From: Oryzias latipes | Taxonomy: Eukaryota; Chordata; Actinopteri; Beloniformes; Adrianichthyidae | Direction of reading: 5' to 3' | Assembly: GCF_002234675.1 (NCBI RefSeq) | Contig: NC_019867.2 | Location: 21,985,042-22,049,041, forward strand | Length of the DNA stretch: 64,000 nt | Shown here: in pieces, positions 6,629 to 36,515 of the stretch | How the letters are laid out: each line of letters starts with the position of its first letter | How positions within the stretch are numbered: position 1 is the stretch's first letter | Notes under the pieces: generated by a model | Seen by the model: only the letters and a program-made list of their open reading frames with translations | Told to the model about the DNA's origin: nothing | Database searches by the model: none | Made by a program: the position numbers and the translations under genes

Positions 6629-9544
6629 CTAATATGGCGTCAAAACAACTCCTTTACTCACAACTGGCTGTCTGCTTTGTTGTTTCACCTCAAGCCATTT
6701 TCCAACAGCTCGTCGCACCCAGGCAACAACATTAACTAACCTGCCAAGATCACTAAAGTTTTCTACAGTTACAACACTCCCAATTCTCCAACTAGTATAT
6801 GGCTTTAATGAACTGGTAGGTGTGCCTAGGCCTTGTTGAGCCATGTTTAAATTTGCTTGTGGAATTGGGTTACTGTCATCTCGACTTGCTTGTGCTCTGG
6901 TTACCACTGCTGTGAAGACATTTCTCTGAAGTTTGTTCACACTTTCTCTGGCATAAGCTGCAACCTCATTTGCAGATTTCATGGGCCACTCTTCTATAGG
7001 CCGTTTTAGGAACGCTGGTCCATCTTTCCATGCAGAGTTTTCTTTCAATCCCTCAGGAGACGCTCCTCTTGTAATGATGTCAGCAATATTTAATTCTCCA
7101 GGAATCCACCACCAGTCCTCCACTGACACAGCCTTCTGAATCTCACCAACACGGTTAGCAAAAAATGTTCGATATCCATAACTTTCTCTCTTAATTGCTC
7201 CAAGGACTGTTTGGCTGTCCATCAGATGAATCCATCGCTCAACTTCCACCCCTCCATGGTTCTCAAAGTATTTTCTTAGTCTGCTTGCAAAAACTGCACC
7301 ACAGAGTTCAGCTTTGGTTGCGTCTCCTTTCTGATCCAATGGTGCAAGCTTGGCTTTTGACTCAACAAAACGAACATCAATTCCAACCTTGGTGACCCAC
7401 CTCAGATACATCACAGCACCATAAGACTTATCACTTCCATCAGAAAAGGTGATCCCCCGTAGTTTCCCAGTCCAGTCAGCTGGTGTAATGCTTCGATAGA
7501 ATTTAATTTGTCTCAGATCCACCAACTCTTCAAAAAGCTTTATGGCTTCTTCTCTTAGACATGCTGAAAGGGGTTTATATATTTATATGCTCAGTTTTCC
7601 GCCACCTGCCTCTTAGAATGCCTTTCTTACTAAGATTGCACCCTTTTGTTTAGCAGGTGCTACTAAGCCGATAGGGTCATAAAGTCCAGCTACTTGGCTC
7701 AGCAGTTCTCTTCTAGTCAGTGGGTCAGGTGTTCCAGATCTCACCTCTTTCTTAAGCAGATCCTTTCCAAGTCTCATTTTTTTCTGTTTGTTGGAGAAGT
7801 TAATGGAAGTCAGCATATAAAGTTTATCCTCTTCAACATCGTATCCAACACCCAGAGCTTTATTATCTTCATCTCTCATTTGATTCGCAAGAATAATAGT
7901 TGTGCTTGGTATGGCTTCGTCTTGTTTTGTGTCAGGTTTTTTCCCAGTCGTTTCCCTCCCACTTTGCTGTGACCGGACCCATGGTTTCAAAGAGAAGCCT
8001 CCAGATTGCAAGATTTTCTCTACTCCTTCTGTTATTTTATCCAGTCGCTTCAGGCTATTGTGGGAAGTAAGGATGTCATCGACATAACTGTCTTCTTCAA
8101 TTACTCTGTGTTCCTCTTCTAGGTGAGCAAAGATTGGCAGATTAGCTGTTTATCTCATAGCTAACTGCACAATGCAGCCGGCTGGTCTGCCTCCAATGTT
8201 GACTCGGGTAATGGCAAACTCTTTTATTTCTTCTTCAAACTTATCCCTCCACAGGAATCTGTGTAAGTGCATCTCACGTTCTTCCAACCACACAGAGTTG
8301 TACATTTTCTTGATGTCGCCCAGGGCAGCATACAACCCTCGCCTGAACCTCAGTAAAACAGCTATTATAGGGTTTAACACATCTGGTCCCTTTAACAGAA
8401 GATCATTCATGCTTAGCCCTTTAAACCTCTGACTGCTGTTCCACACAAGCCGTACAGGAGTAGTCACAGAATGTGGATTCGGTGCCACCAGATGACTTGC
8501 ATACCAGACTGGTCCTGTCCAGTTCATTTTGCTCTTCTCAGTGAGTTCTATAGCTGCTCCCCGCTCAATCATTTCATGTATCTGGGTTGTATATGCAGCT
8601 TTCCACATTGGATCTCGATCCAGTTGTTTCTCAGTTTTCAAGAATGTTAACTCCACTGTATGCTTATTATTGGGGAGTATAGTAGGATCCTCCTTCCAGG
8701 GATATCTTGCATGCCAATGTGGAAACTTTACATGACTATCCTCCATCACATAAGTAAGGCCGTCTTTTATAATTTCAAGCTCCTTCTCCTTAGCCAGAGT
8801 CATTTCTTTTCCACCAGCTTGGCAATTTCCACATTGACATCCCCCGCATTTAGGCTCACAGGCTGCCCCAATACTCTCCCACCTCCACCATTTGAGAAAT
8901 TCATGATTGGTGGCAGTGGTAAACTTCACATTAGTTACATCTTGTTTTCTGAGATCAGGATTACAGTCAGTCTTTGGATCTCTATAAATCTCCTCATATC
9001 TTACAACAGCTGTTCTCATTGATCGGGCAAAGTGGGTTCTTGACTCCTGCACCAAAACTTCCACATCCTCAAAAAGGTCAGGATGTGCTCCACCCACTGT
9101 TATCCCCAATGGAATTTCCCACAAGACAAGATCTCCAATTACTTTCATTCTTTGTGGAGCCAGTCTCCCTTCTCTATGGCTGATGAGAAGCTCAATCTCT
9201 TTTGGTCTCTTTAGTTGCTCCAAATCAATGTCAGGAAAGAATGTCTTCAACTTCTCAGGTGTGATGACATCATACACTCTACCAATTTCATCAAGCCCAT
9301 AACAGACCAGTTCATGTGAGGCCACTGTGCCTTTAGGAGTTTTAATTCTGACTCTGAGAAGATATCTTTGTGTTGAAACTTTCATGGTCATTCCACCCAC
9401 CCCATGGACAATCAGTGTGACCTTCTCACTTTGCAATCTCAATCTTTCAGCAGCTTTGTGGGTAATATAGTTTGTATCGGATGCGAGATCTATCAGTGTC
9501 CCGATTTTTTGACCTGCATTAGCAGTAATCTCCATCAACATCAT
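6629..9544 (-). pseudogene. BEL/Pao retrotransposon pol region (protease, RT, RNase H), frameshifted, integrase missing
   Basis: Three minus-strand frames succeed one another. 8150-9544 starts with an aspartic-protease-like segment (LIDLASDTNYIT) and continues into the Pao-type reverse transcriptase (LVWNSSQRFKG, KMYNSVWLEEREMHLHRFLW). The RT catalytic box reads SYVDDILTS at about 8068-8094, between the open frames. 7613-8011 carries the rest of the RT and a Pao-specific segment (LLSQVAGLYDPIGLVAPAK). 6629-7525 is the RNase H-like domain (FSDGSDKSYGAVMY, MDSQTVLGAI, WWWIPGELNIADIITRG). No integrase follows; the element ends next to a MITE. The copy is broken by frameshifts. Confidence 0.85.
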
Positions 9545-9605
9545 GATGACAGGAAGTTCACAAAGTCCATTCTTTTTCAGCAGCTCAGACTGGGTTTTAC
9601 TTGTG

Positions 9606-11327
9606 TTAAGTCATTTTTCTTGAGTTGTTTGTAAAAGCTTTTCTACATTTTTCTGCCATACCTGGAGAAAGTTGAGATAAGAACTCCTGTTGCTCATCAG
9701 TCAGTTTGCAGTTGGTACTCCTCTCACAGACCTTCTTGTTCTTAACAGTATCTGCTTTTGGACAGAGGAAATAATGGTGGTTAGAAATGCCATCCTTTTT
9801 GCAGTCTTTATTTCTGCATAAAAAAGAATCAGTGCAATAACTGTCTCCATCGTGACATCCAAGGCATCTTCTGCAGGCTTTCAGTTTTTCTATAGCAGCA
9901 TGCTTATCATGGAGATTCAGTAGCTTGAACTTTTTACAGAAGAATATTTTATCACCATGTCCTCCGTCACCACACACAACACAAACATCATGAAGTGCTT
10001 TCTTTGTTACTCTTGTGGAGGCATACTGTTTGTCAAATGTTCTTGCAGGACGTTGAGCTGACTTCTCCATTTTATCCACCGTTTTTAACTGCTCCAGCCT
10101 CTCAAGGATTTTTTCCTGATGTTTTAGAAACTGCAAAAGTTCATCAAAATGGTTTTCTGATGAGATGTCATTTTTAGGCTCTACTAAAAAGGTTAGCCAG
10201 TCTCTTTTTATGAAGTCAGGTAGTTTACTTTCTATTGTTTGTGCCACCAATGGATTCTTTATCGCACCAGACGTCCCAAGCTCTGTCAGGTCTGTTAAAG
10301 CTTTCTCCACAGACTGTATTAGGTCAATGACTTTTCTTGGCTGATTTCCCCTCACAGGAGGGATCTTCTCTAATTCTTCCAGTATCTCAATGGTGATGGA
10401 TTCTTTATTTCCAAACCTGTTATTCAACACTCTGAAAATCTCATCCGCTGTACTATAAATTGACAATCTAAGGTCCTTGGCAATCTTGTCATCAACACTA
10501 TCCAAAAGTTGAATTTTTATGACTTTAGCTGACCCAGATGGCTCGCCTTGCTTTTGTAGTCTCTCCCAGTCTTTCCTCCATCTGTCAAAGTCTCTTTTAT
10601 TACCTGTGAAAATGGGAAGGGCTGTTGGCTTAATCCTCACAATGGGTACAGCAGGTGTTAATGATGTGGAGGGTACTCTGTCTCTTCCACCAACTACTTC
10701 CTCTTCAACCCTTCGAGCAGTAACAAACTCAACTTTCCTCAGCTCAAGGTTACTGCTGATTGCTTTTGAACCTCTGACTCGGCCATCCAGGTTCCTCCTT
10801 TCTTCCATAGGCATCCATTTCTCCCAGGCAGACATAATCCTGATCACCTCTTGCATCTTTTTACTAAGAAGAGTCATGTAGACCTCATACCCTTCTAGAT
10901 ACATTCCTTTTATAGGTAGGCCACTTGCTGCTTCAGCATTTTTTTCTGCCTCGAGAATAGAGGCTTCAACTTCATACTGACCATATCTTGACCACAAGTT
11001 CTTTTGAACTATTTCCTTTACTTCTTTAAACTTCTCTTCAGCATCAACTGCTGTCTTTTCAATGTCATAATCCAATGCCTTTTCAAGGATGTCCTCTGAT
11101 TCTTCTTTTGTTGTTTGAAATAAAAGTCCAACTTTGTACTCATCATTGCTTTCCAGAAGATGTTTGAAGTAGTCAGACAGTTTATGAAATTCTTCTTTTA
11201 GCTCTACTTCAGACATGCTGTTAGCTTCTCTAGTGAGAATGTTGGTCTGTCGTGTGAATCTGCTTTTTGCAGCAGTCCTCTCCCTTTTGAGTTCCTTAAC
11301 AGTCTTTCTTGGGCCTTCATTTGCCAT
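9606..11327 (-). CDS. BEL/Pao gag polyprotein (DUF1759-type, zinc knuckles), 573 codons
   Basis: One open frame from an ATG at 11325-11327. The N-terminal 200 residues are basic and coiled-coil-like. The central part reads ALPIFTGNKRDFDRWRKDWER and LRLSIYSTADEIFRVLNNRFG, typical of the DUF1759 gag region. The C-terminal region is Cys/His-rich (CVVCGDGGHG, CRRCLGCHDGDSYC), as in BEL/Pao nucleocapsid. It precedes the pol frames in the same orientation with a short gap. The open frame makes this the best-preserved part of the element. Confidence 0.8.
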   Translation of the reverse strand: MANEGPRKTVKELKRERTAAKSRFTRQTNILTREANSMSEVELKEEFHKLSDYFKHLLESNDEYKVGLLFQTTKEESEDILEKALDYDIEKTAVDAEEKFKEVKEIVQKNLWSRYGQYEVEASILEAEKNAEAASGLPIKGMYLEGYEVYMTLLSKKMQEVIRIMSAWEKWMPMEERRNLDGRVRGSKAISSNLELRKVEFVTARRVEEEVVGGRDRVPSTSLTPAVPIVRIKPTALPIFTGNKRDFDRWRKDWERLQKQGEPSGSAKVIKIQLLDSVDDKIAKDLRLSIYSTADEIFRVLNNRFGNKESITIEILEELEKIPPVRGNQPRKVIDLIQSVEKALTDLTELGTSGAIKNPLVAQTIESKLPDFIKRDWLTFLVEPKNDISSENHFDELLQFLKHQEKILERLEQLKTVDKMEKSAQRPARTFDKQYASTRVTKKALHDVCVVCGDGGHGDKIFFCKKFKLLNLHDKHAAIEKLKACRRCLGCHDGDSYCTDSFLCRNKDCKKDGISNHHYFLCPKADTVKNKKVCERSTNCKLTDEQQEFLSQLSPGMAEKCRKAFTNNSRKMT

Positions 11328-11590
11328 TTTTGTGTTGAGAACTCTCCACGTCTGCGTCAGCAGCTTTACACAGGACCTTCTGAAGCCTTTTATCTTCTCC
11401 TCCTGGCTGCATCGTGGTTATCAAGTGTAGAGTTATTTCTTTTCATTTTCAATGCTGCCCAACTCGAATGGCTCAGGAGACAACGGAGGACGCTGGACAA
11501 CTCCACTCATTTTAACTTCTTTTTATTTTCAACAAAGAATGGATGAGAGCCTGATAACCTTGAAATAAAACAGAAAATAATTAAACAGAT
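11328..11590 (-). repeat. BEL/Pao 5' leader and possible LTR remnant
   Basis: This is the segment upstream of gag. It contains TTGATAACCACGATGCAGCC on the minus strand just after CTCTACA, which could mark an LTR end and primer site, but no matching 3' LTR was found. It is cut off by the adjoining LINE. Confidence 0.3.
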
Positions 11591-11601
11591 ATCAGAAATG
11601 T

Positions 11602-13869
11602 TTGTCAGAAATGTACTGTTATTTTAAACTTGGGTTATTAATTAATGACATAAGCGATCACTTGCCTGTATTTGCTATATTTGACTTCAGGTTGCAAAAA
11701 AAGTCAGCAGAAATCCACCAAATATACAAAAGAATAAGGAATGATGAAACTCTGAACGCTTTCAGAAGTGATCTCATAAATCAAGACTGGAATGAAATTT
11801 ATACAAATGATGTAAACGGTGCATATGAGGCTTTTCTGAAATGTTATTTAGATCTTTACAATAGACACTGTCCAGAAGTTCTAAGTAGACCTAAATCTAA
11901 AAATAACAGAAAACCCTGGATAACAAAGGGCCTACAGAATGCTTGTAAAAAGAAAAACAAACTCTATAAGGACTTTTTAAACTTAAGAACAGCAGCAGCT
12001 GAAAAACGTTATAAGGTTTACAAAAACAAGTTAACAAATGTATTGAGACAAGCTGAAAAGAAATATTATCATAGGATTCTGTATGAAAATAAACATAACT
12101 TAAAGGCTACGTGGAATATTCTGAATAAGGTCATAGGAAAAGAGTCAGGATCAATAGAACTACCTCACTTCTTCCTTAAAGACAATGTGGTCATCAAAAA
12201 GCAAGAGGACATGGCAAATGAATTCAATTCATTTTTTGTAAATATAGGACCCAATTTAGCAGAAAATATTACATGCAATTTACAATCAAAAGATATTATT
12301 GAAAATAAAAATTGGATTTCCCATTCTATGTATTTATCTGATGTGACTGAAAATGACATTTTGACTACAGTATACAAACTAAAAAACAAGACCTCAAAGG
12401 ACAGTGACGGGATTGACATGAAATTAATAAAAATGACCATAGATTGTGTTGTAAAACCACTACATCATATCTTTAATCTTTCACTTAAATTAGGAATTTT
12501 TCCTGAGAAGATGAAAATAGCTAAAGTTATTCCTTTTTTTGAAAATGGAGACAGACATACTTTTAATAATTACAGACCAGTATCATTACTTTCTCAATTT
12601 TCTAAAGTTTTAGAAAAGTTGTTTGTTAACAAACTAGACAGCTTTATTGAAAAAAATAAATTGTTAAGTGAGAATCAGTTTGGGTTTCGTTCTAATAGGT
12701 CTACAGATTTGGCTATAATGAAAATAGTTGAAGAAATTTCAACAGCAATCGACAAAAAGAAATACACAATAGGAGTTTTCATGGATTTAAAGAAGGCTTT
12801 TGACACCATAGATCATTCTATCTTGATTTCTAAATTATATGCATATGGGGTTAGAGGAATCGCCCTGAACTGGATCACCAGTTATTTAAAAAACAGACAA
12901 CAATATGTACAGTTTGGAGGTAAGAAGTCTGATCTTATGAATATTATTTGTGGACTCCCACAAGGCTCAATTGTAGGACCTAAACTTTTTATTTTATATA
13001 TAAATGATATCTGTGATATTTCTAAGTTGTTACAGTTTGTTTTATTTGCTGATGATACTAATTTTTTCTGTTCTGGGGATAATCTGAAAACCTTAGCTAA
13101 AGGTATTGAAATGGAAATGATAAAACTCAAAATGTGGTTTGACTACAATAAACTATCTTTGAATCTAACAAAAACAAAGTTTATGGTATTTGGTAATAAA
13201 AACAGAACAGAAGTGACTTTGTCCATTGACAATATAAAAATAGAACAGGTGTCTGAATTTAAATTTTTAGGGGTTATGTTGGACGACAAATTAACATGGA
13301 AATCTCATATATTTTATGTAAAAAATAAATTAGCAAAGAGCCTTTTTGTTCTGAACAAATCTAAATATGTTTTACCATGTCATATTATGCACATGTTATA
13401 TTGCTCTTTGGTTTTACCTTATTTCACATATTGTATTGAAGTGTGGGGAAATACATATGAAACTAATATAATGCCCTTAATTCTACTACAGAAGAGAGCT
13501 ATTCGAATTATTCACAAAGCTAATTTTAGAGACCACACAAATGATCTTTTTATTAAGTCAGGCTTATTAAAACTTAAAAATTTAATTGAATTGCAGACCT
13601 TATTAGTTATGTTTAAAGCCAGAAACAGAGATTTACCAGAAGACCTACAAAAGCTTTTTATTTTTACCACAGGAGATGAAAATCATAGGAGAAAATATGA
13701 TTTCAAACAACAGATTGCTCGAACAACATTAAAGCAAAAGTGTTTGTCTATAGCAGGGGTAAAAATGTGGAATTCCCAGGAGAATCAGTTAAAAAGTTGT
13801 CAAAATATTATTAAATTTAAACGCATGTATAAAGCTAAACAAATTAGTTTGTACAAACTTGACTGTTGA
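11602..13869 (+). CDS. LINE ORF2: endonuclease end plus reverse transcriptase, 755 codons open
   Basis: The frame opens near the last conserved block of an apurinic-type endonuclease (SDHLPVFAIF, residues about 18-27), so most of that domain is missing. A full reverse transcriptase follows: YRPVSLLSQFSKVLEKL, GVFMDLKKAFDTIDH, GLPQGSIVGPKLF, and the catalytic FADDTNFF near residue 485. The C-terminal region has the KFLGVMLDDKLTWK block. I place it in the Jockey/CR1/L2 group of non-LTR elements; the clade is not resolved. The long undisrupted frame indicates a recent, 5'-truncated insertion. The 3' end is marked by an AAATAAA-type tail. Confidence 0.85.
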   Translation: MSEMYCYFKLGLLINDISDHLPVFAIFDFRLQKKSAEIHQIYKRIRNDETLNAFRSDLINQDWNEIYTNDVNGAYEAFLKCYLDLYNRHCPEVLSRPKSKNNRKPWITKGLQNACKKKNKLYKDFLNLRTAAAEKRYKVYKNKLTNVLRQAEKKYYHRILYENKHNLKATWNILNKVIGKESGSIELPHFFLKDNVVIKKQEDMANEFNSFFVNIGPNLAENITCNLQSKDIIENKNWISHSMYLSDVTENDILTTVYKLKNKTSKDSDGIDMKLIKMTIDCVVKPLHHIFNLSLKLGIFPEKMKIAKVIPFFENGDRHTFNNYRPVSLLSQFSKVLEKLFVNKLDSFIEKNKLLSENQFGFRSNRSTDLAIMKIVEEISTAIDKKKYTIGVFMDLKKAFDTIDHSILISKLYAYGVRGIALNWITSYLKNRQQYVQFGGKKSDLMNIICGLPQGSIVGPKLFILYINDICDISKLLQFVLFADDTNFFCSGDNLKTLAKGIEMEMIKLKMWFDYNKLSLNLTKTKFMVFGNKNRTEVTLSIDNIKIEQVSEFKFLGVMLDDKLTWKSHIFYVKNKLAKSLFVLNKSKYVLPCHIMHMLYCSLVLPYFTYCIEVWGNTYETNIMPLILLQKRAIRIIHKANFRDHTNDLFIKSGLLKLKNLIELQTLLVMFKARNRDLPEDLQKLFIFTTGDENHRRKYDFKQQIARTTLKQKCLSIAGVKMWNSQENQLKSCQNIIKFKRMYKAKQISLYKLDC

Positions 13870-15800: not shown

Positions 15801-15910
15801 TCTTCACTGGTGTCCATGGATTACATGAAATTGTCTTCACCTTTCCCCACTTTTGTCATGGTAGGGATAACACGTCAATGTTAGGGTGGGGTCATAGGAT
15901 AGCACAAGGG
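15801..15910. mobile_element. Truncated copy of the piggyBac-like MITE family
   Basis: It carries the family's right two-thirds (TCTTCACTGGTGTCCATGGA ... GATAGCACAAGGGTTA). The left end is missing. Confidence 0.6.
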
Positions 15911-15979
15911 TTATAACTGTGTTCCCCTTCACATTGAGAAGTGCTGTATACTGACAAGCATGCACAGAACCTTGGTAAT

Positions 15980-24199: not shown

Positions 24200-24833
24200 G
24201 TTTAAGCAGTGAGTTATTTATAATCCAGTAAGCTTTCTTATTTTGGAATGTAGTTTCAGATCATTTAATCGAAATGTAAATTGCGTTATGATCTGTTAGT
24301 GGAGAAGGAAAAATGTTAACTTCAATATCATCTGCACTTAGACTATCAGACACCACCCAGTAATCGATAAGATTGTTTGGATCCATCATTATTACTCCAG
24401 GTAAAAACAAAATCTGATGGAAATTTTCAGCTTATATCTTTCAGCTTATATCTATGCAAGAATGACTGTAAGGGACAATCAGAAAGAGCACATGGTGGCC
24501 ATTTGTCCAGCTGATTATTTAATGCTTTATTAAAATCCCCTCCTATTATAATAATCGCATCAGGAAATTTGTTTAGACCACAAATTATATCATTTTCATT
24601 CAAAGAAAGGAGCTCAACATTTTCAAGTTTGAAGTTGTAACCATATATGTTAATGGTAATAAAGATCTTGAGTGGATATTATCAAAAAAACATAGTGTCC
24701 CTGACTGTCACATTTGCTCATAAGAATGTCACTCTCATGTTTGTTTTCAACTGTGAGAGTGCCAGCTGAATGCTGACTACCATGTGATGGGTATACATTT
24801 TCACCCCATTGTCCAGAAGTTTGTATCATTACT
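24200..24833 (-). pseudogene. Tx1/L1-like LINE endonuclease fragment, downstream part
   Basis: Minus-strand reading in order gives WGENVYPSHGSQHSAG (near 24.79 kb), IIIGGDFNKALNNQLDKWP (near 24.55 kb), then LIDYWVVSDSL and PLTDHNAIYISI (near 24.3 kb). These are successive blocks of an L1/Tx1-type endonuclease. The start of the same domain lies at 36398-36515, on the far side of the composite transposon. The frame is broken in places. Confidence 0.7.
24828..24833 (+). repeat. Left target-site duplication of the composite transposon (ATTACT)
   Basis: ATTACT recurs at 36398-36403. Joining the two flanks across a single copy restores the LINE endonuclease reading across the site (HFTSNDTNFW on the minus strand). 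Confidence 0.75.
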
Positions 24834-24857
24834 ATGGAAGTTTTTCTGTGCCATCAG

Positions 24858-25007
24858 ATTCTGAATATTTTTAACCCTTGAATTTTCATTCTGAATTTTT
24901 TTTACCTTTGAATTTTCATTCTGAATTTTTATAACTTTTGAATTTTCATTCTGAATTTTTATAACCCTTGAATTTTCATTCTAAATATTTTTTAACCCTA
25001 ACATTTG
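24858..25007 (+). repeat. Subterminal 30-bp tandem repeats, five units
   Basis: The units start at 24858, 24888, 24918, 24948 and 24978, each beginning ATTCTGAAT (ATTCTAAAT in the last) and most ending TTGAATTTTC. The mirror-image array sits in the right terminal repeat. Tandem subterminal arrays often bind transposase; that role is inferred here. Confidence 0.75.
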
Positions 25008-25107
25008 ATCTCCCAAAAATTCAATGTAAAAAAATTCGACGTGGAAGACGCTGCTTCTTTTGTGCCACTAGCACAACTAGTCGATCTAAGAACACATCGA
25101 TATCCAG

Positions 25108-25138
25108 CCAATCAAGTCATGAGAACGACATGACGTCA
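25108..25138 (+). promoter_or_regulatory. CCAAT box and CRE of the left terminal promoter
   Basis: CCAAT at 25108-25112 and the full CRE/ATF palindrome TGACGTCA at 25131-25138 stand 58 and 32 bases upstream of the transposase ATG. They are duplicated in mirror image at the right end (CRE at 36097-36104). No TATA box was seen nearby. Function is inferred from motif and position. Confidence 0.5.
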
Positions 25139-25169
25139 GCGTTCGGTACGTTTTACAGAAGTCCAAAAG

Positions 25170-28100
25170 ATGGCAGCAAACTCGGCAGGCGGTTCATCGG
25201 TGAGTCATTAATCCTTTATATCTCTCTATTATCGTCTCATTGACGTCGGCTAATAGAGCACAAAAACGTGCATCTTTTGTTGATATTTTATTTTTTCAAT
25301 TTTTCCTGCCGCGAACTATGTGTCAACTTTCAGCTTCCGGGTTCAGGACGTTATTGCTTAGTTAGAACGGACCAGAGAAGCGGTTTCCAACTATAGAGCG
25401 AGATGATTTTCTAATGTGCTTTTATTTTTGTTGTGATAATTATTGAGTTCATGTTCGCTCATAATTTTCTAAGTCCATACATGTGGCCAGTGCTTTATTC
25501 TTTGCCGAATTTACCCCGTAATAACTTAGGGTTAGGCTAATATGTGTCAAAAACCTTTAGCTTCGGATGAACTTACATTCAACGCCGAAATGTGCATCTT
25601 GGCTGCAGGTAAATACGTGGGAATAGAATCCGCCTTTTTTCTGGACGTGACTTCTCACTGTCCCAAAGCCGATCCTCTGATTGGAGACACAGTTCTCCGA
25701 GTCCACTCATGCAGAGCCGGCGGACAGAGACTGCGGTCAGAAGTCTCCTTTTTGCAACAATAAAGAAAACTCAGATATGATAACCGGCATTATGTTAATG
25801 GGAAAATAAAAAAACAAATTGTTTTTTTTTTTATTTTAATTTGAAAAACGAATGATGGATGGATTGTTGTTGCTGTAATGCCTTCAGGTGCAGAGCGGGG
25901 GCATACCCCAAAACAATAAGTCACAGGCTTCTGTTTCAGTAGTTGCAAGGAGGCAAAATAAAAATTTTCATGTCTATATTTAGGAGTTATTGACAATACA
26001 AGCTGGAAATCTGCAAATGTCCGTCAGATTTAACAAGACTCTAATTTTTTTCTTTTTTTTTCTTTATCTCTCTTCTAGGAACTTCTACAACATATTTTTG
26101 AGAGACTTCGCTCCCGTTTGGAACATGTTCTTCAACGCTTACCCCTAGATCTGGACTTCTTAGACTTCATTTGCACTCAAGAACATGTATTTTTAAATGC
26201 TTTGTCTAGTCAGTTAACAGTCTGTCCTGCTATTTTAGAGGAACTGACACATCTGCAAGGACTTATTAGTACTGAAAAAGAAAGAACAAACAGTTGCATT
26301 GCTGTTGTGCAATGGGAGCAGGGTCCAGCTGGGCGACAACGAATGGCGCTATCCTCAGACTACCTTTGTAGCCTTCTGGAACTTAATCTTCCGGTCACAT
26401 GCATAGCCAAACTCTTGGGTATGTCCAGAAGAACAGTTTACAGACGTATGAATGAATCTGATCTTTCAGTGAAAGGACTATATAGCACCATGTCAGATGA
26501 AGACTTGGATCAGTGTGTCAGAGAAATAAAATCCAGGCAGCCTAATTCTGGGTATCGAATGATGAAGGCTCTGCTGCAAGCCCAAGGACATAGAGTGCAG
26601 TACAACAGAGTCAGAGCATCCATGCATCGTGTAGACACTTCAGGTGTCCTGTCACGTATGGTCCATCTAGGATGCATTGCTCGACGAACGTACTCTGTTC
26701 CAGGCCCCATGTCCTTGATACACATAGATACCAACCACAAACTAATACAGTATGTTATTTCTGAATTATATATTCTTGATAACGTGAACCTTAATGCAAA
26801 GTTTGCGTTGAAATACAGTTGCAAATGATATGCATGTTATTTGATCAAGTGCTTTGTTGATGTTACTTACCATGCAGCACAAAGAAAAACACATTTGAGT
26901 TATATTTAACTTTTTTGGTTTAAAAAAAATAATCCTTTCTTTTCCCTTTTTCCTACTTTCAGCTACAGCATTGTCATTTTTGGTGGCATTGATGGTTTTT
27001 CACGCAAAGTAAGCACACTTGTCAATAAAAACACAGTTGTTTAGATGCTTATTCCTCATAAAGGTGTTTTTTACTGTTCTTCAGATAATGTATCTTGGTA
27101 CAGCATCCAACAATCTGGCAGCAACTACACTATCTTTCTTCCAAAGGGCAGTTGAAAAGTTTGGTTTTCCTCTGAGGTTAGGAGGTATTTTTTAATTCCA
27201 ATTTGACATTTAACCAATATTTTCTAAGCACCATTACATATTGTGTGCTTTTTTAATTCTCTATATTAGGGTACGTGCTGATCACGGGGGAGAAAACGTA
27301 GACGTTGCACAACTTATGTTTACGGTCCGTGGCACTGGAAGAAGCAGCTTCATTTCTGGAAAAAGTGTTCACAACCAAAGGTTTGTTTGTTTTAAGAACC
27401 CGATATGTGAGTGTTTTTTTTGTACAAGTAGTAATAGGACAACTGCACTGTCAAAGCATGTGCTACTTTAAGTTGGATTTTAACACACAATTCATTATAA
27501 GAAAAATTTATAAATTTAACACAAATCTTGTATGGGTTTAAGGTCTGGAGATTTCAATGGTCAATTCATATGTAAAAATGATTGCCCGAACCACTTTTAA
27601 TTGTTTAGGTCTGTCGTGATCTTGGACTAGCATGTTATGTTTTTGTTCATATAACTTTTCCTGTGATATTATGGATCACATCAGAATCAGAAATACTTTA
27701 TTGATCCCACATGTGGGAAATTTGTTTGTCACCATAGCAACTGACAGCAGAGGGAGAAAAAAAAGACTAAGAATAATATAAAAAAAAGAACAAAGAAACT
27801 GTAGCATAAATGCAAACAAGGTAGTATAATTTAAAAAGCTATTTACAGAACAGTGCATGTTCAAGTGTTCATTTAAAAACACAATTTTTGCAATTTCCTA
27901 CAGAAGATTTATAATGGAATACTCCATTTACTGAATCACTGTTTTTGTAATGACCTAGGATTGAGCGGCTCTGGAGAGATCTGTGGGTTGCTGTGACCAG
28001 CACATACTACAACGTTCTCCACCACCTTGAAGAAGAGGGATTCCTCAGCATTGCCAGTGTTCAACACCTCTTCTGCTGCCACTATGTATTTTTACCACGT

Positions 28101-28533
28101 ATACAGGAGGACCTGGACACTTTCTGCAGTGGTTGGGATAATCATCCTTTAAGAACAGAAAGTAACATGACTCCTAACCAGCTGTGGGTACTGGGTCGTG
28201 CACGTCATCCCATTCCCGAACCAGAGAACATGGAGGTATATACGAATATATAGATAACTTTGTGATGTTGGTTTGTTTGCTCTTTACCATTTATTTATTT
28301 CTGTGGCTTGCATACCTCAGGGCATGGAGATTCCACATATTGAGTGGGAGGAGAGTGGACTTCCTCATCAGGACCATTCAGACGTCGTTGTGCCAAACAT
28401 CAACTGCCCACTGACAGATGAACAAATGGCAGCTTTAAGAAGTGCAGTTGACCCAAGAGCTGAATCAGACTCCTTTGGCTCTGATGTTTACATTGCAGCT
28501 GTTCAGTTTTGTGAACATTTTTTTCCACAATAA
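25170..28533 (+). CDS. IS3-like DDE integrase/transposase, seven exons, 479 residues
   Basis: Exons: 25170-25199, 26079-26749, 26963-27008, 27085-27176, 27270-27380, 27959-28235, 28321-28533. They total 1440 bp, all with GT/AG borders and matching phase. The first exon ([10 protein letters not shown]) lies in the terminal repeat. Residues about 114-134 form a helix-turn-helix ([16 protein letters not shown]). Residues about 151-195 resemble the IS3 OrfB pre-core helix-turn-helix ([18 protein letters not shown]). The integrase core follows, with candidate catalytic Asp227 ([10 protein letters not shown]), Asp284 (RADHGGEN) and Glu319 (IERLWRD), i.e. D56D34E spacing. After the core come TPNQLW and an acidic tail. 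It should cut and join the element ends. No stop or frameshift was seen, so it may be functional. Confidence 0.88.
25360..25765 (+). repeat. Segment related to the 19.6-kb hAT element, in intron 1 of the transposase gene
   Basis: It shares successive blocks with 19.9-20.3 kb and 41.88-42.2 kb (AGCGAGATGATTTT, GTGCTTTTATT, TTAGCTTCGGATGAACTTAC, GTGGGAATA). It is present only at the left end of the composite element, so it either inserted later or is captured sequence. Exact ends were not found. Confidence 0.5.
27680..27735 (-). repeat. SINE/LINE tail fragment in transposase intron 5
   Basis: On the minus strand it reads AATTTCCCACATGTGGGATC then AATAAAGTA, the same tail as the SINE at 57.8-58.06 kb. 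It lies within the 578-bp intron 27381-27958. Confidence 0.55.
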
Positions 28534-28587
28534 AGGAAAAAAAATCTGTTAAGAGGCCAGTGGGATCAGTTTCATCAGTGGTTTATT
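28529..28587. terminator. Back-to-back polyadenylation signals of the two convergent genes
   Basis: AATAAA at 28529-28534 (plus) overlaps the transposase stop codon TAA at 28531-28533. AATAAA on the minus strand at 28582-28587 lies about 125 bp beyond the ligase stop. The two signals are 48 bp apart, so the transcripts end tail to tail. Confidence 0.5.
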
Positions 28588-28711
28588 TGAGAGCAAAATC
28601 TCAATCTTTTTTTTTTAACAAAAACAGTAAAACACGTGACATTCAATGCCACAACAAACTTCCTGATCTTAACAAAACCTTTTTTTAAGAACATAAAACA
28701 AACCCAAGAAT

Positions 28712-31700
28712 TTACAGGAGCCCAAATCCTGTATGACAAGTCTCAATACAGGCAAGGAGATCACATCTGAAAGATCTGTAGTCTCTGTAATGACCTGGAA
28801 TTTTTAAGGTCTCATAGCATGTGGAGGCTGTGGGATAGCTGCTTCTGACGATCTCCACAGACAGGCTCTTCGGTAAAATCTCCCATCCAGTCCAAAATTT
28901 GGCTAAATTCATCAATTCAACTGCCGTTCCTGTAAACATAAATGAAGCAAAATCCAGAATAAAGATTATGTTTCAATTTATTTGTCAAAAAAAATTTAAC
29001 TTTACAATTCTTAAACTGTGTGTCAGTGTAGCTTTAAGGCTAATTTGGAAAAATATGTATTTAACAGACGTAATTACACTTACTGGACAAATAAGAGTAA
29101 CATAATCATGTTAATGTTTTCATTCATGAATGTTAAGGTTTTCTTTCTGGAATTGATATTTTTTTATAAATTCAATTCAATAGCAGCCAGGTAAAATTTT
29201 TTTAGCACTCCCATTTATGAAAGAAACGTACCATTTTTAATGAACTCCTGAAGATACCCCTTGATGCGGCTTTTGGTTTCAGCAGACCAATCATCATCTT
29301 CATCTTCCTCCTCCTTTGGCCAACTGATGCGTTGAAGAAATATCTGTAATAAGATAAAAGTATTAAACATGTTGGAACAATTTAACTTCAATATATAGTA
29401 TCCCCCCCCCCCAATTCACAGGGGTTAAGGACCAGAGACACCTGTTAATACGCCAAATTTGAGAATGCCAATACCACATTTATTTTGTAAAAAGCATGAA
29501 AATTCTCAACAAAGTGAATTTTTTAAGAAAATGGTAGAAGTACAAATCCTAACTGAGGTCACTGGCAAATATGTACCTCAGGACAAATGTCGCCTGTTCT
29601 TTCACTTGGAAAAATCAAGGCTGCAGTTTCAGGTCGCTTGGTAAGCACTGTCCACACTGGAGTCTCTTTAAGCCCTCGTCTCAGCTGTTTAATTTGCCTT
29701 GTGACACGTCCAATGACCTACAAACAAACAGATTTAAACAAACAATTTATAAACAAACAAACAAATTATAGTTGGTGATGGCACAGTTGTTAAGTAGAGA
29801 ATTTGGAATTGTCACTTCATTTCATAAAACCTGGTCTGGAGTCTAATGATGCTAAAAAACAAGCTCTCATAAAGGATGTCATACATTTTCTATCATGGCT
29901 TTGCTATTTTTTTTATAGAAGGTCTGGTAGTTTATTTAGAAGGAAAAGCAAAAATACTATACTCAGGCATCCATGATATTTAAATAAAAAGATTCTGCCA
30001 AAAAAAAAAACATTTTCACTCACAGCATGGATCAACAGCTTCTCAAAAAGCCATTTTTTATTGCTCTCTGTCAAGCAAGGAAGGTCCCACGCATAGGCCA
30101 ATTCCTGAACCCTTGCTCTTTCAGCATCAGAAAGTGCATTGTCCCCTTCAAGCTTAAAATAAAATAAAAAGTTAAGATCTAGCGCAAAACGTGATATTAA
30201 AAAATAAGTGTAGTTCAGATATTGAAATACACTTCTCAGAACCTAAGAACAAAAATTTTGAAAAAATTGAAACAAAAATTACAAGCTCGATTTTCTCTCT
30301 GATGTCCAGGTCTGCGCAGTCCTCCAGTGTAACGGTTGCCGTTTCAGGGCTCCCACCAAGTAGGACATGGACAACAGCGGGGCTGAGCCCAGACAAGCAG
30401 GGTCCTTCATGTATGAAGGAGTGGCCAATCATTCTCCCTGCCACCAGGAACATGTCACTCTCCACGAGAAAGTGAGAGGCTGAGGGAACTAAATGGCCAG
30501 GTGGTCCTTCAAAAAGGCATGTAACATTGGAATTTGCTGTTCAAGACATTAAAATGAAAAATTAATTAAGTTATAGGTTAGTCTTTCATACGATTTGGAA
30601 GGAGGCATAATGTTATGTGCTTACCAAAATTGATGCAAAATCCAGATTTCAGTTTCTCCATACATGTGGAGATAAAGTAACGAGTGACTCCCTGTCCAAC
30701 AGCAGTATCCCCTTTAATACAAAGGTGAGGTTTTAAAAATTGAGCAAACAGTAAATATGTTTTCTTTTGTAGTAAAATTGCTGTGACATCCATTTACATG
30801 TACCTTCCAGTCTGCAATTCAGGGGACGTGCCCACTCTACATTAGGCCGCTTGTAAAATAAAACAAGGGCCAAATCCTGTTGAGCTGGGGTCTGTTTCAG
30901 GTCCATGCTCAAAACCAATGGACTTTCCCTTTCATGAATACGGCGATAAAAACTTGCACATGCAGACATGGCTTTTATGGGGTCACTGATGGTTAGCCAA
31001 CCTATAAAAATAATCAAAAAATAAACAAATGAAGTGGTGGTTTATTTAAACCACATGTCAAGCGTCAAATCTTAAAGGCATGTCACTTTTGCTTGGATGT
31101 TAAATTAGTTCACCTTACATTTGAACATCACTGTAACAGTAAACCATGAGTCGGGAGTACAGCAATATTACCAAAAGGTTACCTTCTGCAACTACTGCAT
31201 TGTACTAACCATGAGCTACACCTACCATCACTGACCAGGGCTCCAGACTAACTTTTTTCACTAGGAGCACTGTGGCCCCTAACTGAAAATTTTAGGGGCA
31301 CAACCAGAAAATTTAGGGGCGCATACCGTAAATCAACATTCTAACCAAATCTACTAATTTCCACTGTATTACTAATAAATACTTTAATAATAGATGCAGA
31401 AATTACAATGTGCTGTTTCAAATTCAGTGTCACATTTTATTCTGCACTTTTGAAGATGCAACAAGAAGGTAAACTGACAGCACCATCGCTGTCACGACAG
31501 TACAAAGAAGTAAAGAAAACGGATGGAAATTTATCTTTGTGACACCAAATAGGTGCAGCCAAGATGCACAATAAGCGTGTTTGAGATCACCCAGGTGAAC
31601 TCAACGCTGCACAGATCACCTGGTGTGTGACATATATTTTTGTTTTTGCTCCAACATCACCTGTCAATCATCACAAAAATATCGCGAGAAAGGGGTGGGA

Positions 31701-34700
31701 GCAAGGGGCAAACCTACCCGGACACAGCTGGAAACTGAACTGACTGAAAGCTGCCCTACAGACTACAAAACAATGCATTATGGGACATGTGTCCTGATGG
31801 TTTTTGTAGTGGAGTGATTAATTAAAATAATTTAAAATACCAATTCATTAAAAAAGGCTACATACATCACAAAACATTAAAATAATCATAAAATATATAA
31901 TAACACAGATCATACTAAGGGGGAAAGAATATTAAAACTACACTGAATGTTAAGGACAACTCCAACTTCCTGTTCTCCTTCAGTCTTGCTGCAGATTCGC
32001 TTTCATCTCACAGCCCCCCCGCCTGGTCTCCCCAATGACCCAGGCGAGCCGCCGGTTCATCTCAAACACGTCTATCGTTGCATTTTCCCCACGTATTTTC
32101 AGTGTGTCTAAAACTAATGTTGTTTTTGCTCGAGCGTGTTTAATTCTCCTCAGCTGACCCGACTCCCGCGGGACGGGAGCGGTGAGCTGCCGTAACGGCC
32201 GTGCATAAACCGTTTGATGCGCCGCCGTAACCGTAACCAAAACCTAAACCTTCCTCCGGGTCTGTGTGACCCAGAGAAAAGTTCAGCACGGACTGCATGT
32301 ATTTAGAAAATTACGAGCGAATAAATACGTTCTAAAGGAAAGTAAGGAACTCCTTAATGTGGTCCGGGGAGGGAGGGGGCTGTCAGGTTTCCGTCTTTCA
32401 AGTCCTGTCATTGCCACGCCCCCAAGAGTCATATACCCCACTGTGATTGGTTGCTTTGTCAGCTTCGCGCACGACAATGAACAAGTGTCATTCATACAAA
32501 CTGGCGGGCTGCAGTAACATTAAACCTTCATATTAAGGCGGGGACCGCAAAATATCATCTTGGGGGCCGCAAATAGCCCGCGGGCCGCGAGTTTGAGACC
32601 CCTGCTGTACACTCTGGCACTGGTACACTAGCCGCAGGTGGGAAGAACGAATCAATAGTTTGCTTACTCATAGCTCAGACGCACATATCAGGTTGTGATA
32701 TTTGTCTCCGTTTCCTTCCCACAGATGTTTACGCGCACTCGATTATCTCTAGGCCCCTCCCCCTACACGCATTTTAGCCACTCACAGTGGCTTTCCCTAT
32801 TCTTCTCACACGCAGTGGCCGCGTCACAGACGGGCATCACGCGAGAGTGTGTGCTCGCGTTTGATGAGTATGTGCGCGAGTGTGTGTGTCTGCCTGCGTG
32901 CGTGTGCGCTCGCGTCTCATTGATCATTTCATTGATCATTGACGTGCCCCTTCCACGTTTGATGTATAAAAAAATACGTAGGGTGGGGGAGGCAAATTTA
33001 CTGGTCGCGCATGTGCGACTGGATGTAAAATTCAGTCGCCCACTCTCATATTTTGGTCGCAAAATGCGTCCAATTGGTCGCAGTCTGGAGCCCTGCTGAC
33101 AGTTGAAGTTCCAGATGGTCCTGGAACTGCACTTTGCTCCTCCTCACTGACAGTACCTTCAAGTATTCTTTCATTTCCTGCACTACTCACATAGTTCTTT
33201 CTGTTACACTTCGGACAAATAGGTTTAATGTAGAGTAAAAACTTTCAATAGCAAGAAGTTAATAATTACCTTTCTCCACATGAAGAAGCATGCTCCTCGA
33301 TGAAGTCAGTGGAAAACATTTCCGTGCATAGAGGACATTGCTGCAATGCTGAAGAAATCAAAAGTTACAAACTGAAATAAATTTCCACTGCAAGTTTTAA
33401 ACAACTAGTTTCTAAATTTGCTGTAGTCACAGTGTGTTTACAAAAGATTACAAAAAATTCTTACATTTGTTCACCACTGGTTCATTGGCATCCACACCAG
33501 CACAAGACTGGATGTGTACTGTGAGAAGTTGAAGGGGAACTGCTTCTGTACACTTCTGACATGTGGCTTTGGGCATGCTGCTGAATGCCTTATCAGTTGG
33601 GTGAAGAGGGTCGGTGCTGAGCTCTTCTTGTATTGGCGCTATGAATAACGTTGCATTGCCATTCTTATTTGCCAATTTTAAGATCTTGCCTGTGTATCCG
33701 GTGCTATCAGGTGCCACTAAAGAGAGTTTTCGGCTCCCCCATCCGCCTGTATAAAACATTTAAGGAAAATTAGGCTATAAAACTTAGATAGTTACATTAA
33801 TACTTTAAACACACTAAAAAACTTAAGGCCAATTTGATTACTGTTTGAGTACTATCAAAAACAAAATAATCTAAAGCAATCTTAAGGATAAAAAAAGATA
33901 CCCAACTTTGTTATTAGGAATTAAGATGTCATATGTATACAATTACAAATAAATATTATATTTTCAAAACTTCTTAAGGTGTATCAATATGCAAAAGTGA
34001 TGAAATGGCACTGGAATAGAAACTCAATATTTCCCACCTCGACACTTGTACACCAACCAACCACCAGTAACTGCTGCCAGTTTTGGAAACAAAACATTGA
34101 GGGCTTCACACAGCTGTAAACAAACATTATATACATTATTAACTTAATTAAGGATAAAAAAAAAAGTGCTCTTATATAATTGTAATAACTTTGTTTTTTT
34201 ATTTCTTAGATGTCAAACTGAGGGAGTTACCAAATAGATATTGAAAATAGACACACAAACATGACAATTTGCATCTTATTACCTCATCATGTGTTGTGCT
34301 TTCATATAGTTGAGCAGTCCTGCGACCCAACCCTGCCTGCAGGTGGACTATCTGCTCTTCTTCAGATGGACTTCTCTCATATTGTTTAGGCAACAAGTGA
34401 AAGACCACTTCCAATGGTTTAATTTTCTTTGCAGGGATATAACTTGCTGCAGGAAAGCGCCGCTTTCCTCTTCCACGGGCAAAGATACCTGGAAAGGACC
34501 TTTAAAAAACAAAAGAACAAAGATGTGTGACTAAAAAACACTATTATAACAATTTTATTTGAAGATTGACATATGAAACAGATGAACAACATAAAGCTTG
34601 CTATGACGTAATAACCTGACATGGTGAGTCAAAAGTCTAGACACATCTCATTATGAAAGTGTAGAAATGTCAACACCTGCGATTTCTTTATGTTATATAA

Positions 34701-36065
34701 ACATTTAGAACAAGAACTTTTGCGTTGTAAATTGGTGGTATTGTAGTTAGCACAACCACCTCATGTGAAAAAAACAAAAACAAATTTTCTTAACCTTTTA
34801 CCTTGGGCAATAAATATGGAGCCATAAATGTTTTGTATTGGTCGAGCATAACGGTATTTGCTCAGTTGTGCATAACCTTAAATTGGACTAACTGGGTGGC
34901 AAACATTTGTTTAACAAAATAATTTCCCATTGCTATTAAGAGCATGTGAGCCACATTCAGCTGAGGAGCTGCAGGAGTGAAACCAACTAAAAGAAAGAGA
35001 GGCAAAAAGAGGCAAGAAAAAAAAGGCAAAAGAGGGCTTGTCTAGATATGTTCAGCACCCCCCATTGTCGTGCCTGTTTTTGTCACTACAGAAAAACTAC
35101 CAACACAAAAAGGTTGAAATGAATGAAAACACAGTTCTGTTCAAGTTTACCGTGTCATTTCCATCTGAACAGATGGTCTTTCTGGTCCAGTGTTGTTAGT
35201 GTGGCTGCCTTGCCTCTGCTCCCTATACAATGCAAACATATTCATTAATCAGATAAGGCTTGACCTCGAATTTAATAATCAAAAAAAAAAGGCAGAGATG
35301 AAAACCTCTGGTTTAATACTCAACCCTTCAGTGTGAGTAGTAACACCAGAGTTAGTGCTCTGGTGTCTCCCAGATGATGTTACCAGGTGCAGTAAGCGTT
35401 GGATTGACTGCACAATTTCACTGTTATCACTCTAACACAAAACACAAATACACAAATTTAGCCCACGGATGGAAACATAAAATATTAGCGTTATTTATTT
35501 TGTAGTCCATAAACGCAGTGCTTCTCAATAATTTTTTGCGCACGCCCCACTATTTGAGAAGCACTGCAGATTAACGCAAAATATAAGGAGATGGTAGTCG
35601 CTATCTGGCTATATACGTGGTCTTTCACGTTAGCAAAAAAGCTAACACAAGGCGGGAAAATTAAAAAAACATAAAAAATATTTTGTCATTTATTATATAA
35701 ATTTGAAAAATAGATGAGTGGTTCATGTAACATTGCTTTGTTTTTATTTTAAGTTGAAAAACGAATGAACAAGTGATACACGTATTGTTTCTTTTACATA
35801 CGCATACCAGAGTTAGCGGTCTGATTCTGTCTGACCCACGACCAGGTGCAGCAGCAGTCACTAAGCGCGGGATTAATAACTGCACAATTTTTTTTCACCG
35901 TGATTCGCGGCGGGAAAAATAGCGAGAACACAAATTTGAAAAAATAAAATATCAACAAAAGATGCACGTTTTTGTGCTCTATTAGCCGACGTCAATGAGA
36001 CGATAATAGGGAGATATAAAGGATTAATGACTCACCGATGAACCGCCTGCCGAGTTTGCTGCCAT
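28712..36065 (-). CDS. RAD18-type zinc-finger HECT E3 ubiquitin ligase carried by the transposon; exon 8 interrupted by a hAT element
   Basis: Fifteen exons: 36036-36065, 35325-35431, 35151-35222, 34283-34499, 34038-34113, 33465-33746, 33270-33348, exon 8 in two parts (33096-33200 and 31226-31230/31235), 30804-31001, 30625-30711, 30283-30536, 30024-30152, 29577-29717, 29232-29343, 28712-28929. Leaving out the insertion and one duplication, they sum to 2112 bp (703 residues) with every phase matching. Residues 1-10 are the terminal-repeat leader. Two C-x2-C-x11-H-x3-C fingers (Cys230/233, His245, Cys249; Cys266/269, His281, Cys285) resemble RAD18-type ubiquitin-binding fingers. About 325-703 is HECT-like (GDTAVGQGVTRYFIS, GRMIGHSFIHEGP). 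The active-site-like STCYETLKIP places Cys669 34 residues from the end. It presumably conjugates ubiquitin; substrate unknown. Closest known relatives by look are fish G2E3-like proteins. Confidence 0.85.
31236..33095. mobile_element. 1.86-kb hAT-like element inserted in exon 8 of the HECT gene
   Basis: The ends CAGGGCTCCAGACT and AGTCTGGAGCCCTG are perfect inverted repeats. The flanks are CTGAC (31231-31235 and 33096-33100), a 5-bp duplication. Removing the element and one CTGAC restores the exon reading frame (TSTVSDG) exactly. The interior is a mosaic: AT-rich at left, CpG-rich at 32.0-33.0 kb. Its ORFs have no recognised transposase motif, so it is non-autonomous. Confidence 0.8.
32530..32614. 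repeat. Terminal fragment of a second hAT element nested in the insertion
   Basis: CCGCGGGCCGCGAGTTTGAG followed by ACCCCTG is the familiar end of a Charlie-like hAT (CAGGGGTCTCAAACTCGCGG in reverse). The other end was not located. Confidence 0.45.
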
Positions 36066-36397
36066 CTTTTGGACTTCTGTAAAACGTACCGAACGCTGAC
36101 GTCATGTCGTTCTCATGACTTGATTGGCTGGATATCGATGTGTTCTTAGATCGACTAGTTGTGCTAGTGGCACAAAAGAAGCAGCGTCTTCCACGTCGAA
36201 TTTTTTTACATTGAATTTTTGGGAGATCAAATGTTAGGGTTAAAAAATATTTAGGATGAAAATTCAAGGGTTATAAAAATTCAGAATGAAAATTCAAAAG
36301 TTATAAAAATTCAGAATGAAAATTCAAAGGTAAAAAAAATTCAGAAAGAAAATTCAAGGGTTAAAAATATTCAGAATCTGATGGCACAGAAAAACTT
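35936..36397 (-). repeat. Right terminal inverted repeat (462 bp) with promoter and leader exon
   Basis: Mirror image of 24838-25299. It carries the CRE at 36097-36104, the ATG at 36063-36065, the ten-codon leader exon 36036-36065 and the donor GTGAGT at 36030-36035, all read on the minus strand. The element ends here abut ATTACT directly. Confidence 0.85.
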
Positions 36398-36515
36398 ATT
36401 ACTTGTAAAATGAGATACTTGAGAAAAAAAAATGGTTTTCAATTGTTTAGCGAATACAAACAGCGCTTTACGTTTTATGGCATTTCTTAATCCCCTGACA
36501 TTCAGTGAACCTATT
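36398..36515 (-). pseudogene. Tx1/L1-like LINE endonuclease fragment, N-terminal part
   Basis: On the minus strand it reads SLNVRGLRNAIKRKALFVFA and ends HFTSN at the insertion point. SLNVRGLR is the signature opening of Tx1/L1-type endonucleases. It continues at 24833 and below. Confidence 0.7.

What the first reader, a model, noticed from the sequence alone, without database searches (positions are those of the whole stretch)
24838..36397. Composite DNA transposon pairing an IS3-like integrase with a RAD18-finger HECT ubiquitin ligase
One bounded unit (462-bp inverted repeats, 6-bp duplication) holds two convergent multi-exon genes. One is a DDE transposase with IS3-like helix-turn-helix regions; the other is a complete-looking HECT E3 ligase with two C2HC fingers. 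A ubiquitin ligase riding with a transposase suggests the element manipulates host protein turnover, for example DNA-repair, checkpoint or silencing factors, to aid transposition. The layout is read from the sequence; the function is inference. I know of no description of such a system but cannot search.
Basis: partly seen in the sequence, partly recalled or inferred. Interest (0 to 1): 0.93.

Follow-up and report, generated by a model that had tools for sequence, protein, structure and literature searches.

The report
Fish transposon with a ubiquitin-ligase gene
A jumping gene in a fish genome carries, besides its own transposase, a gene for a HECT-type ubiquitin ligase, and both genes begin with the same short coding exon inside the element's mirror-image ends; related fish proteins point to an old, shared pairing, though what the ligase does is not yet known.

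Summary
The layout is real. An IS3EU-type DNA transposon with 466-bp inverted repeats (462/466 identical) holds two convergent multi-exon genes: an intact DDE transposase frame (479 aa) and a HECT E3 ligase gene with two C2HC fingers. In this copy the HECT gene is split by a nested 1.86-kb transposon and the right terminus seems to lack about 6 bp. New here: the start codon, first coding exon ([10 protein letters not shown]) and first splice donor of both genes lie inside the repeats, so both proteins start identically. Other teleosts show the same signature with other peptides (MAANFSSGTS, MAEHDERGL, MDDRRSSA). Of 123 same-species pairs 13 lie on one contig, two with consecutive locus numbers, and distances co-vary (r=0.90; mostly between deep clades). 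The catalytic cysteine is kept in 93 of 94 proteins with that column. So the ligase looks like a long-term part of fish IS3EU elements. Its target and benefit are inference. Fungal IS3EU with an opposite-strand alpha-kinase gene and MuDR with promoters in its repeats are published; a HECT gene with a repeat-encoded shared exon was not seen in the listings and passages searched.

The parts
24827..24832 (.). left target-site duplication CATTAC (reading with IS3EU termini)
   Evidence: sequence; IS3EU 6-bp TSD and TAYGG ends from PMC12730594
24833..25303 (+). left terminal inverted repeat, with terminal TATGG
   Evidence: 24838-25303 matches right arm 462/466
24858..24999 (.). array of ~30-bp direct repeats in the left TIR, candidate transposase-binding sites (inference)
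   Evidence: TRF, 4.7 copies
25108..25138 (+). CCAAT at 25108 and CRE-type TGACGTCA at 25131, promoter-like sites just upstream of the start codon (pattern match only)
25170..25199 (+). transposase exon 1 ([10 protein letters not shown]) inside the left TIR, donor GTGAGT
26079..26749 (+). transposase exon 2 (HTH region, first catalytic D)
26963..27008 (+). transposase exon 3
27085..27176 (+). transposase exon 4
27270..27380 (+). transposase exon 5 (second catalytic D)
27959..28235 (+). transposase exon 6 (catalytic E)
28321..28533 (+). transposase exon 7 and stop
28712..28929 (-). HECT last exon, C-lobe with catalytic Cys (PTASTCYETL), stop
29232..29343 (-). HECT exon
29577..29717 (-). HECT exon
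30024..30152 (-). HECT exon
30283..30536 (-). HECT exon (N-lobe)
30625..30711 (-). HECT exon
30804..31001 (-). HECT exon (start of HECT domain)
31236..33095 (.). nested DNA transposon interrupting a HECT-gene exon (14-bp inverted repeats, 5-bp duplication CTGAC)
33096..33200 (-). HECT-gene linker exon, cut by the nested insert
33270..33348 (-). HECT-gene exon with second C2HC finger
33465..33746 (-). HECT-gene exon with first C2HC finger
34038..34113 (-). HECT-gene exon
34283..34499 (-). HECT-gene exon (RSFPGIF motif region)
35151..35218 (-). HECT-gene exon
35306..35431 (-). likely further HECT-gene exon (SDNSEIVQSIQRLLHL..., resembling SQSEIVQSARHLL of relatives); its 3' end is 35384 or 35306
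36036..36065 (-). HECT-gene exon 1 ([10 protein letters not shown]) inside the right TIR, same sequence as transposase exon 1
35932..36397 (-). right terminal inverted repeat (terminal CCATA missing)
36398..36402 (.). right target-site duplication remnant ATTAC

Best explanation
This is a fairly young copy, now damaged, of a teleost IS3EU transposon that is a two-gene unit. Each terminal inverted repeat carries the start codon, the first coding exon and the first splice donor (shown), and probably the promoter (inferred), so transposase and HECT ligase are presumably expressed together and share an N-terminal peptide. The transposase (integrase-type DDE) cuts and joins the ends. The HECT protein of intact relatives is most likely a working E3 ligase, since its catalytic Cys and zinc ligands are kept across deeply diverged proteins, and serves the element as an accessory factor: its two C2HC fingers, of a kind with RAD18 and XAF1 fingers at best weakly, would bring it to its target, and it would ubiquitinate either a host factor that limits transposition or the transposase complex itself. 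Structure, pairing signature and conservation are shown by sequence; expression, activity, substrate and benefit to transposition are inferred.
Against: No full-length element from another genome was seen; pairing elsewhere rests on protein N-termini, contig lengths and locus numbers. Only 6 of 193 same-species pairs share the start peptide (many models are N-truncated, many pairs are not from one element). The threshold of 5 was chosen, and shuffles ignore relatedness. 13 of 123 on one contig is only modestly above the ~5 expected for ~24 chromosomes (recalled). Within the 8 closest pairs co-divergence is weak (r 0.56, 1735 of 20000). The three gene models that join both gene types (P0191, P0229, P0244) have them on one strand, not convergent, and P0244's transposase part looks like another type. 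This copy's HECT gene is interrupted and its right end trimmed. No data on expression or ligase activity.
Confidence: 0.7

Rival explanations
1. The HECT ligase acts on the element's own transposase or transpososome (copy-number control or complex disassembly) rather than on host defence or repair.
For: The shared TIR exon implies co-expression; co-divergence of the two proteins is what protein partners would show.
Against: Co-divergence also follows from linkage alone and is weak among close pairs; no interface or substrate data.
Confidence: 0.3
2. The HECT gene is a passive passenger or host-serving cargo kept by linkage and by sharing the TIR promoter and exon.
For: No functional data; this copy is decayed; fungal IS3EU carry other second genes (alpha-kinase, TET) (PMC12730594).
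Against: Catalytic Cys in 93 of 94 proteins and finger ligands in 83 to 88 of 86 to 94, although the 22 other rows of A2 go down to 37% identity to the first.
Confidence: 0.2
3. A host HECT gene happened to lie between two TIRs in this one locus.
For: Only one DNA copy could be read.
Against: The HECT gene's first exon is TIR sequence, identical to that of the transposase, and the same signature recurs with other peptides in other fish.
Confidence: 0.02

Closest known systems
IS3EU (IS3EU/GingerRoot) superfamily, Repbase
   Same: IS3-like DDE integrase-type transposase, TAYGG terminus (left end), 6-bp target duplication (as far as readable)
   Different: 466-bp TIRs with coding exons; the word HECT does not occur in the main text of PMC10045372 or PMC12730594 (term counts 0)
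Fungal TET+ IS3EU with alpha-kinase and TET/JBP genes (PMC12730594)
   Same: second gene in opposite orientation to the transposase
   Different: alpha-kinase and TET instead of a HECT ligase; shared TIR exon not described in the passages seen
Maize MuDR (mudrA/mudrB; PMC3440606)
   Same: two convergent genes with promoters inside the TIRs
   Different: unrelated transposase superfamily (recalled); mudrB of unknown function; no coding exon in the TIR mentioned in the passages seen
RAG1 / TransibSU (PMC4411706)
   Same: two-gene transposon lineage; vertebrate RAG1 has E3 ligase activity
   Different: RING, part of the recombinase and stated to be missing in TransibSU; not a separate HECT gene

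Membership tests
IS3EU superfamily | IS3-like DDE integrase core without the HHCC domain, HTH N-terminus | tested here: met
   PF24764 E 4.8e-72, HTH_21 and HTH_8 above cut-off, no HHCC family among the matches listed; triad spacing D-56-D-34-E
IS3EU superfamily | TA..TA termini (TAYGG..CCRTA) | tested here: inconclusive
   left end TATGG present; right end lacks the last 5 bp in this copy
IS3EU superfamily | 6-bp target-site duplication | tested here: inconclusive
   CATTAC left, ATTAC right next to the trimmed end; or ATTACT on both sides with a 4-bp offset
IS3EU superfamily | clusters with Repbase IS3EU transposases in a tree | not testable with these tools
   Repbase sequences not held
HECT E3 ligases | HECT fold with catalytic Cys in the C-lobe | tested here: met
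   Pfam and Cys on the window; fold on the relative P0122
HECT E3 ligases | ubiquitin-transferase activity | not testable with these tools
   needs biochemistry
RAD18-type (UBZ4) fingers | C2HC ubiquitin-binding finger | tested here: inconclusive
   C2HC ligands conserved; RAD18 E 0.028 but XAF1 E 0.021; zf-C2HC_2 and zf_UBZ below cut-off; a relative, P0123, matches XAF1_C above cut-off

The most novel reading that the evidence does not exclude
Teleost IS3EU elements carry a dedicated HECT ligase as a standard second gene, with a coding exon built into the TIRs so that both proteins bear the same N-terminal tag; the ligase is a transposon-borne counter-defence or repair-steering enzyme that acts where the element is cut or inserted.
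Probability: 0.35. Interest if true: 0.88.

Novelty: new variant of a known kind. Interest (0 to 1): 0.72.

Why it matters
It would be a vertebrate DNA transposon family with its own HECT-class ubiquitin ligase, kept long enough to co-diverge with the transposase, and an unusual gene design in which the terminal repeats supply the first coding exon of two genes. It would also explain some fish proteins now named 'G2/M phase-specific E3 ubiquitin-protein ligase-like' as transposon genes, and gives a testable case of a mobile element using the ubiquitin system.

Tried and rejected
Relatives in viral contigs: none confirmed. Phage records: none for transposase exon 2, the only piece tried. Rfam: nothing in the window at gathering score. 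The own genome could not be searched (and repeats). Literature, all from listings unless said: searches (0 papers; 4; 1,002, 25 listed; 3; 28, 15 listed; 2; 'IS3EU' with 'ubiquitin', 2; 15, 10 listed; GingerRoot, 9), 4 (IS3EU, 35). Passages were seen of PMC10045372, PMC12730594, PMC12763893, PMC5638112, PMC4411706 and PMC3440606. No listing showed such a system, but Repbase Reports and most subscription papers are not held, so absence from print is not shown. PMC5638112 reports an unclassified repeat with a G2E3 match among those increased in invasive Cottus: possibly this HECT family, not checked. The HECT protein's region around residues 97-202 of P0122 was not folded or searched alone. Rejected: single host-gene capture. 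The shared MASSS(G) start of P0216 and P0218 with P0052, P0058 and P0108 looks like a TRIM start; these six pairs are counted among the 11. One search missed a few entries and held one fused model; one search recounts.

Full report
What is there. The window is fish DNA, most likely Oryzias latipes or very near: the window transposase matches an O. latipes protein at 98% identity over 86% of its length (P0001) and the C-terminal HECT part matches O. latipes LOC105354611 at 100% over 368 aa (P0131), which may be this very locus. The element is flanked by 466-bp inverted repeats differing at 4 sites and sits in a LINE-like sequence (named from recall) whose minus-strand frame is open when the flanks are joined. 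The left end reads CATTAC-TATGG-AAGTTTTT, which fits published IS3EU ends TAYGG..CCRTA and 6-bp duplications (PMC12730594, passages; PMC10045372 gives TA..TA and usually 6 bp, passages). The right end reads AAAAACTT-ATTAC, so it appears to lack CCATA and one base of the duplication.

Gene models. Exon joints are GT/AG and in phase, except where the nested insert cuts an exon. The transposase has seven exons and 479 aa. The HECT gene runs on the minus strand to a stop at 28712, 178 bases from the transposase stop. A further HECT exon at 35431-35384 or 35306 resembles the SEIVQSARHLL stretch of relatives. A nested 1860-bp element with 14-bp ends and a 5-bp duplication splits one HECT exon; from recall, that duplication length suggests a hAT5-like element.

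The shared first exon. The start codon, ten codons ([10 protein letters not shown]) and the donor GTGAGT lie in both repeats and are in phase with both second exons. If this is a rule of the family, transposase and HECT proteins of another fish should start alike, with another peptide. Several do. Among 120 x 120 comparisons the longest common starts are 12 (MAQNTTTNDGAS, an unnamed 'lgn' protein and Misgurnus), 10 (MAANFSSGTS, both Trichomycterus), 10 (MAAANPGGSP, Sarotherodon and Maylandia), 9 (MAEHDERGL, both Brachyhypopomus) and 8 (MDDRRSSA, both Nothobranchius). The first three end just before ELL, ELV or DLL of the transposase, where the window's exon 1 ends. With species labels (115 transposases x 116 HECT proteins), a common start of 5 or more occurs in 6 of 193 same-species pairs, from five species (two of the six share one HECT protein and 99% identical transposases), and in 11 of 13147 others; shuffled labels gave 0.46 on average and never 6 in 5000. 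The threshold was set after one search was seen. Of the 11, two are cichlid pairs, one a carp-order pair, six involve the TRIM-fused P0216 and P0218, and two are Astyanax with Perca and Melanotaenia with Dissostichus.

Linkage and co-divergence. In 13 of 123 same-species pairs with a printed contig length both proteins lie on one contig, in 10 of 28 species (which mends: 13 of 122, 10 of 27); two Melanotaenia pairs have consecutive LOC numbers. Unlinked genes on about 24 chromosomes (recalled) would give about 5, so this test alone is modest; contig identity was judged from its printed length. Three gene models contain parts of both gene types (P0191, P0229, P0244), but on one strand, and P0244 with a transposase part of another look. 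Protein distances of 13 pairs that I chose for linkage correlate (r 0.90, 1 of 20000 permutations); for the 9 linked by exon 1 or neighbouring locus number (the window's own pair among them) r is 0.91 (10 of 20000); within the 8 closest pairs only 0.56 (1735 of 20000). The signal is mostly between deep clades.

Mechanism. Shown by sequence: shared exon, convergent genes, conserved active sites, recurrence of the start signature. Inferred: TIR promoters (a CCAAT and a TGACGTCA site lie upstream of the ATG), co-expression, ligase activity, and an accessory role in transposition acting on host factors or on the transpososome. MuDR is the working parallel for convergent genes with TIR promoters (PMC3440606, passages); fungal TET+ IS3EU for an opposite-strand second gene (PMC12730594, passages). 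RAG1 shows that an E3 ligase domain can accompany a transposase-derived protein (PMC4411706, passages).

Verdict. A real, recurrent, apparently undescribed variant of a known superfamily. 'Undescribed' rests only on the open-access searches named in Tried and rejected.

Noticed in passing
window 31236-33095: Nested DNA transposon (14-bp inverted repeats CAGGGCTCCAGACT, duplication CTGAC) inside a HECT-gene exon.
   Followed up: yes
window 6629-11417, minus: Long ORFs that look like gag and pol of a BEL/Pao-type LTR retroelement (named from recall, no search run).
   Followed up: no
window 11581-13869, plus: Open 762-aa reverse-transcriptase-like ORF, a LINE (named from recall).
   Followed up: no
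window 39877-63169 and 15801-15917: Seven places of a dispersed repeat of up to ~210 bp, SINE- or MITE-like, about 80-93% identical.
   Followed up: no
P0216, P0218: Carp-family proteins that join a TRIM (RING, B-box) N-terminus to this HECT type; possible host fusion of a transposon HECT gene.
   Followed up: partly
P0084, P0128, P0187: Clusters of O. niloticus proteins also bear a ferret (Mustela) label, probably contamination in the source record.
   Followed up: no
PMC5638112: An unclassified repeat with a G2E3 match is among repeats increased in copy number in invasive Cottus; may be this HECT family.
   Followed up: no
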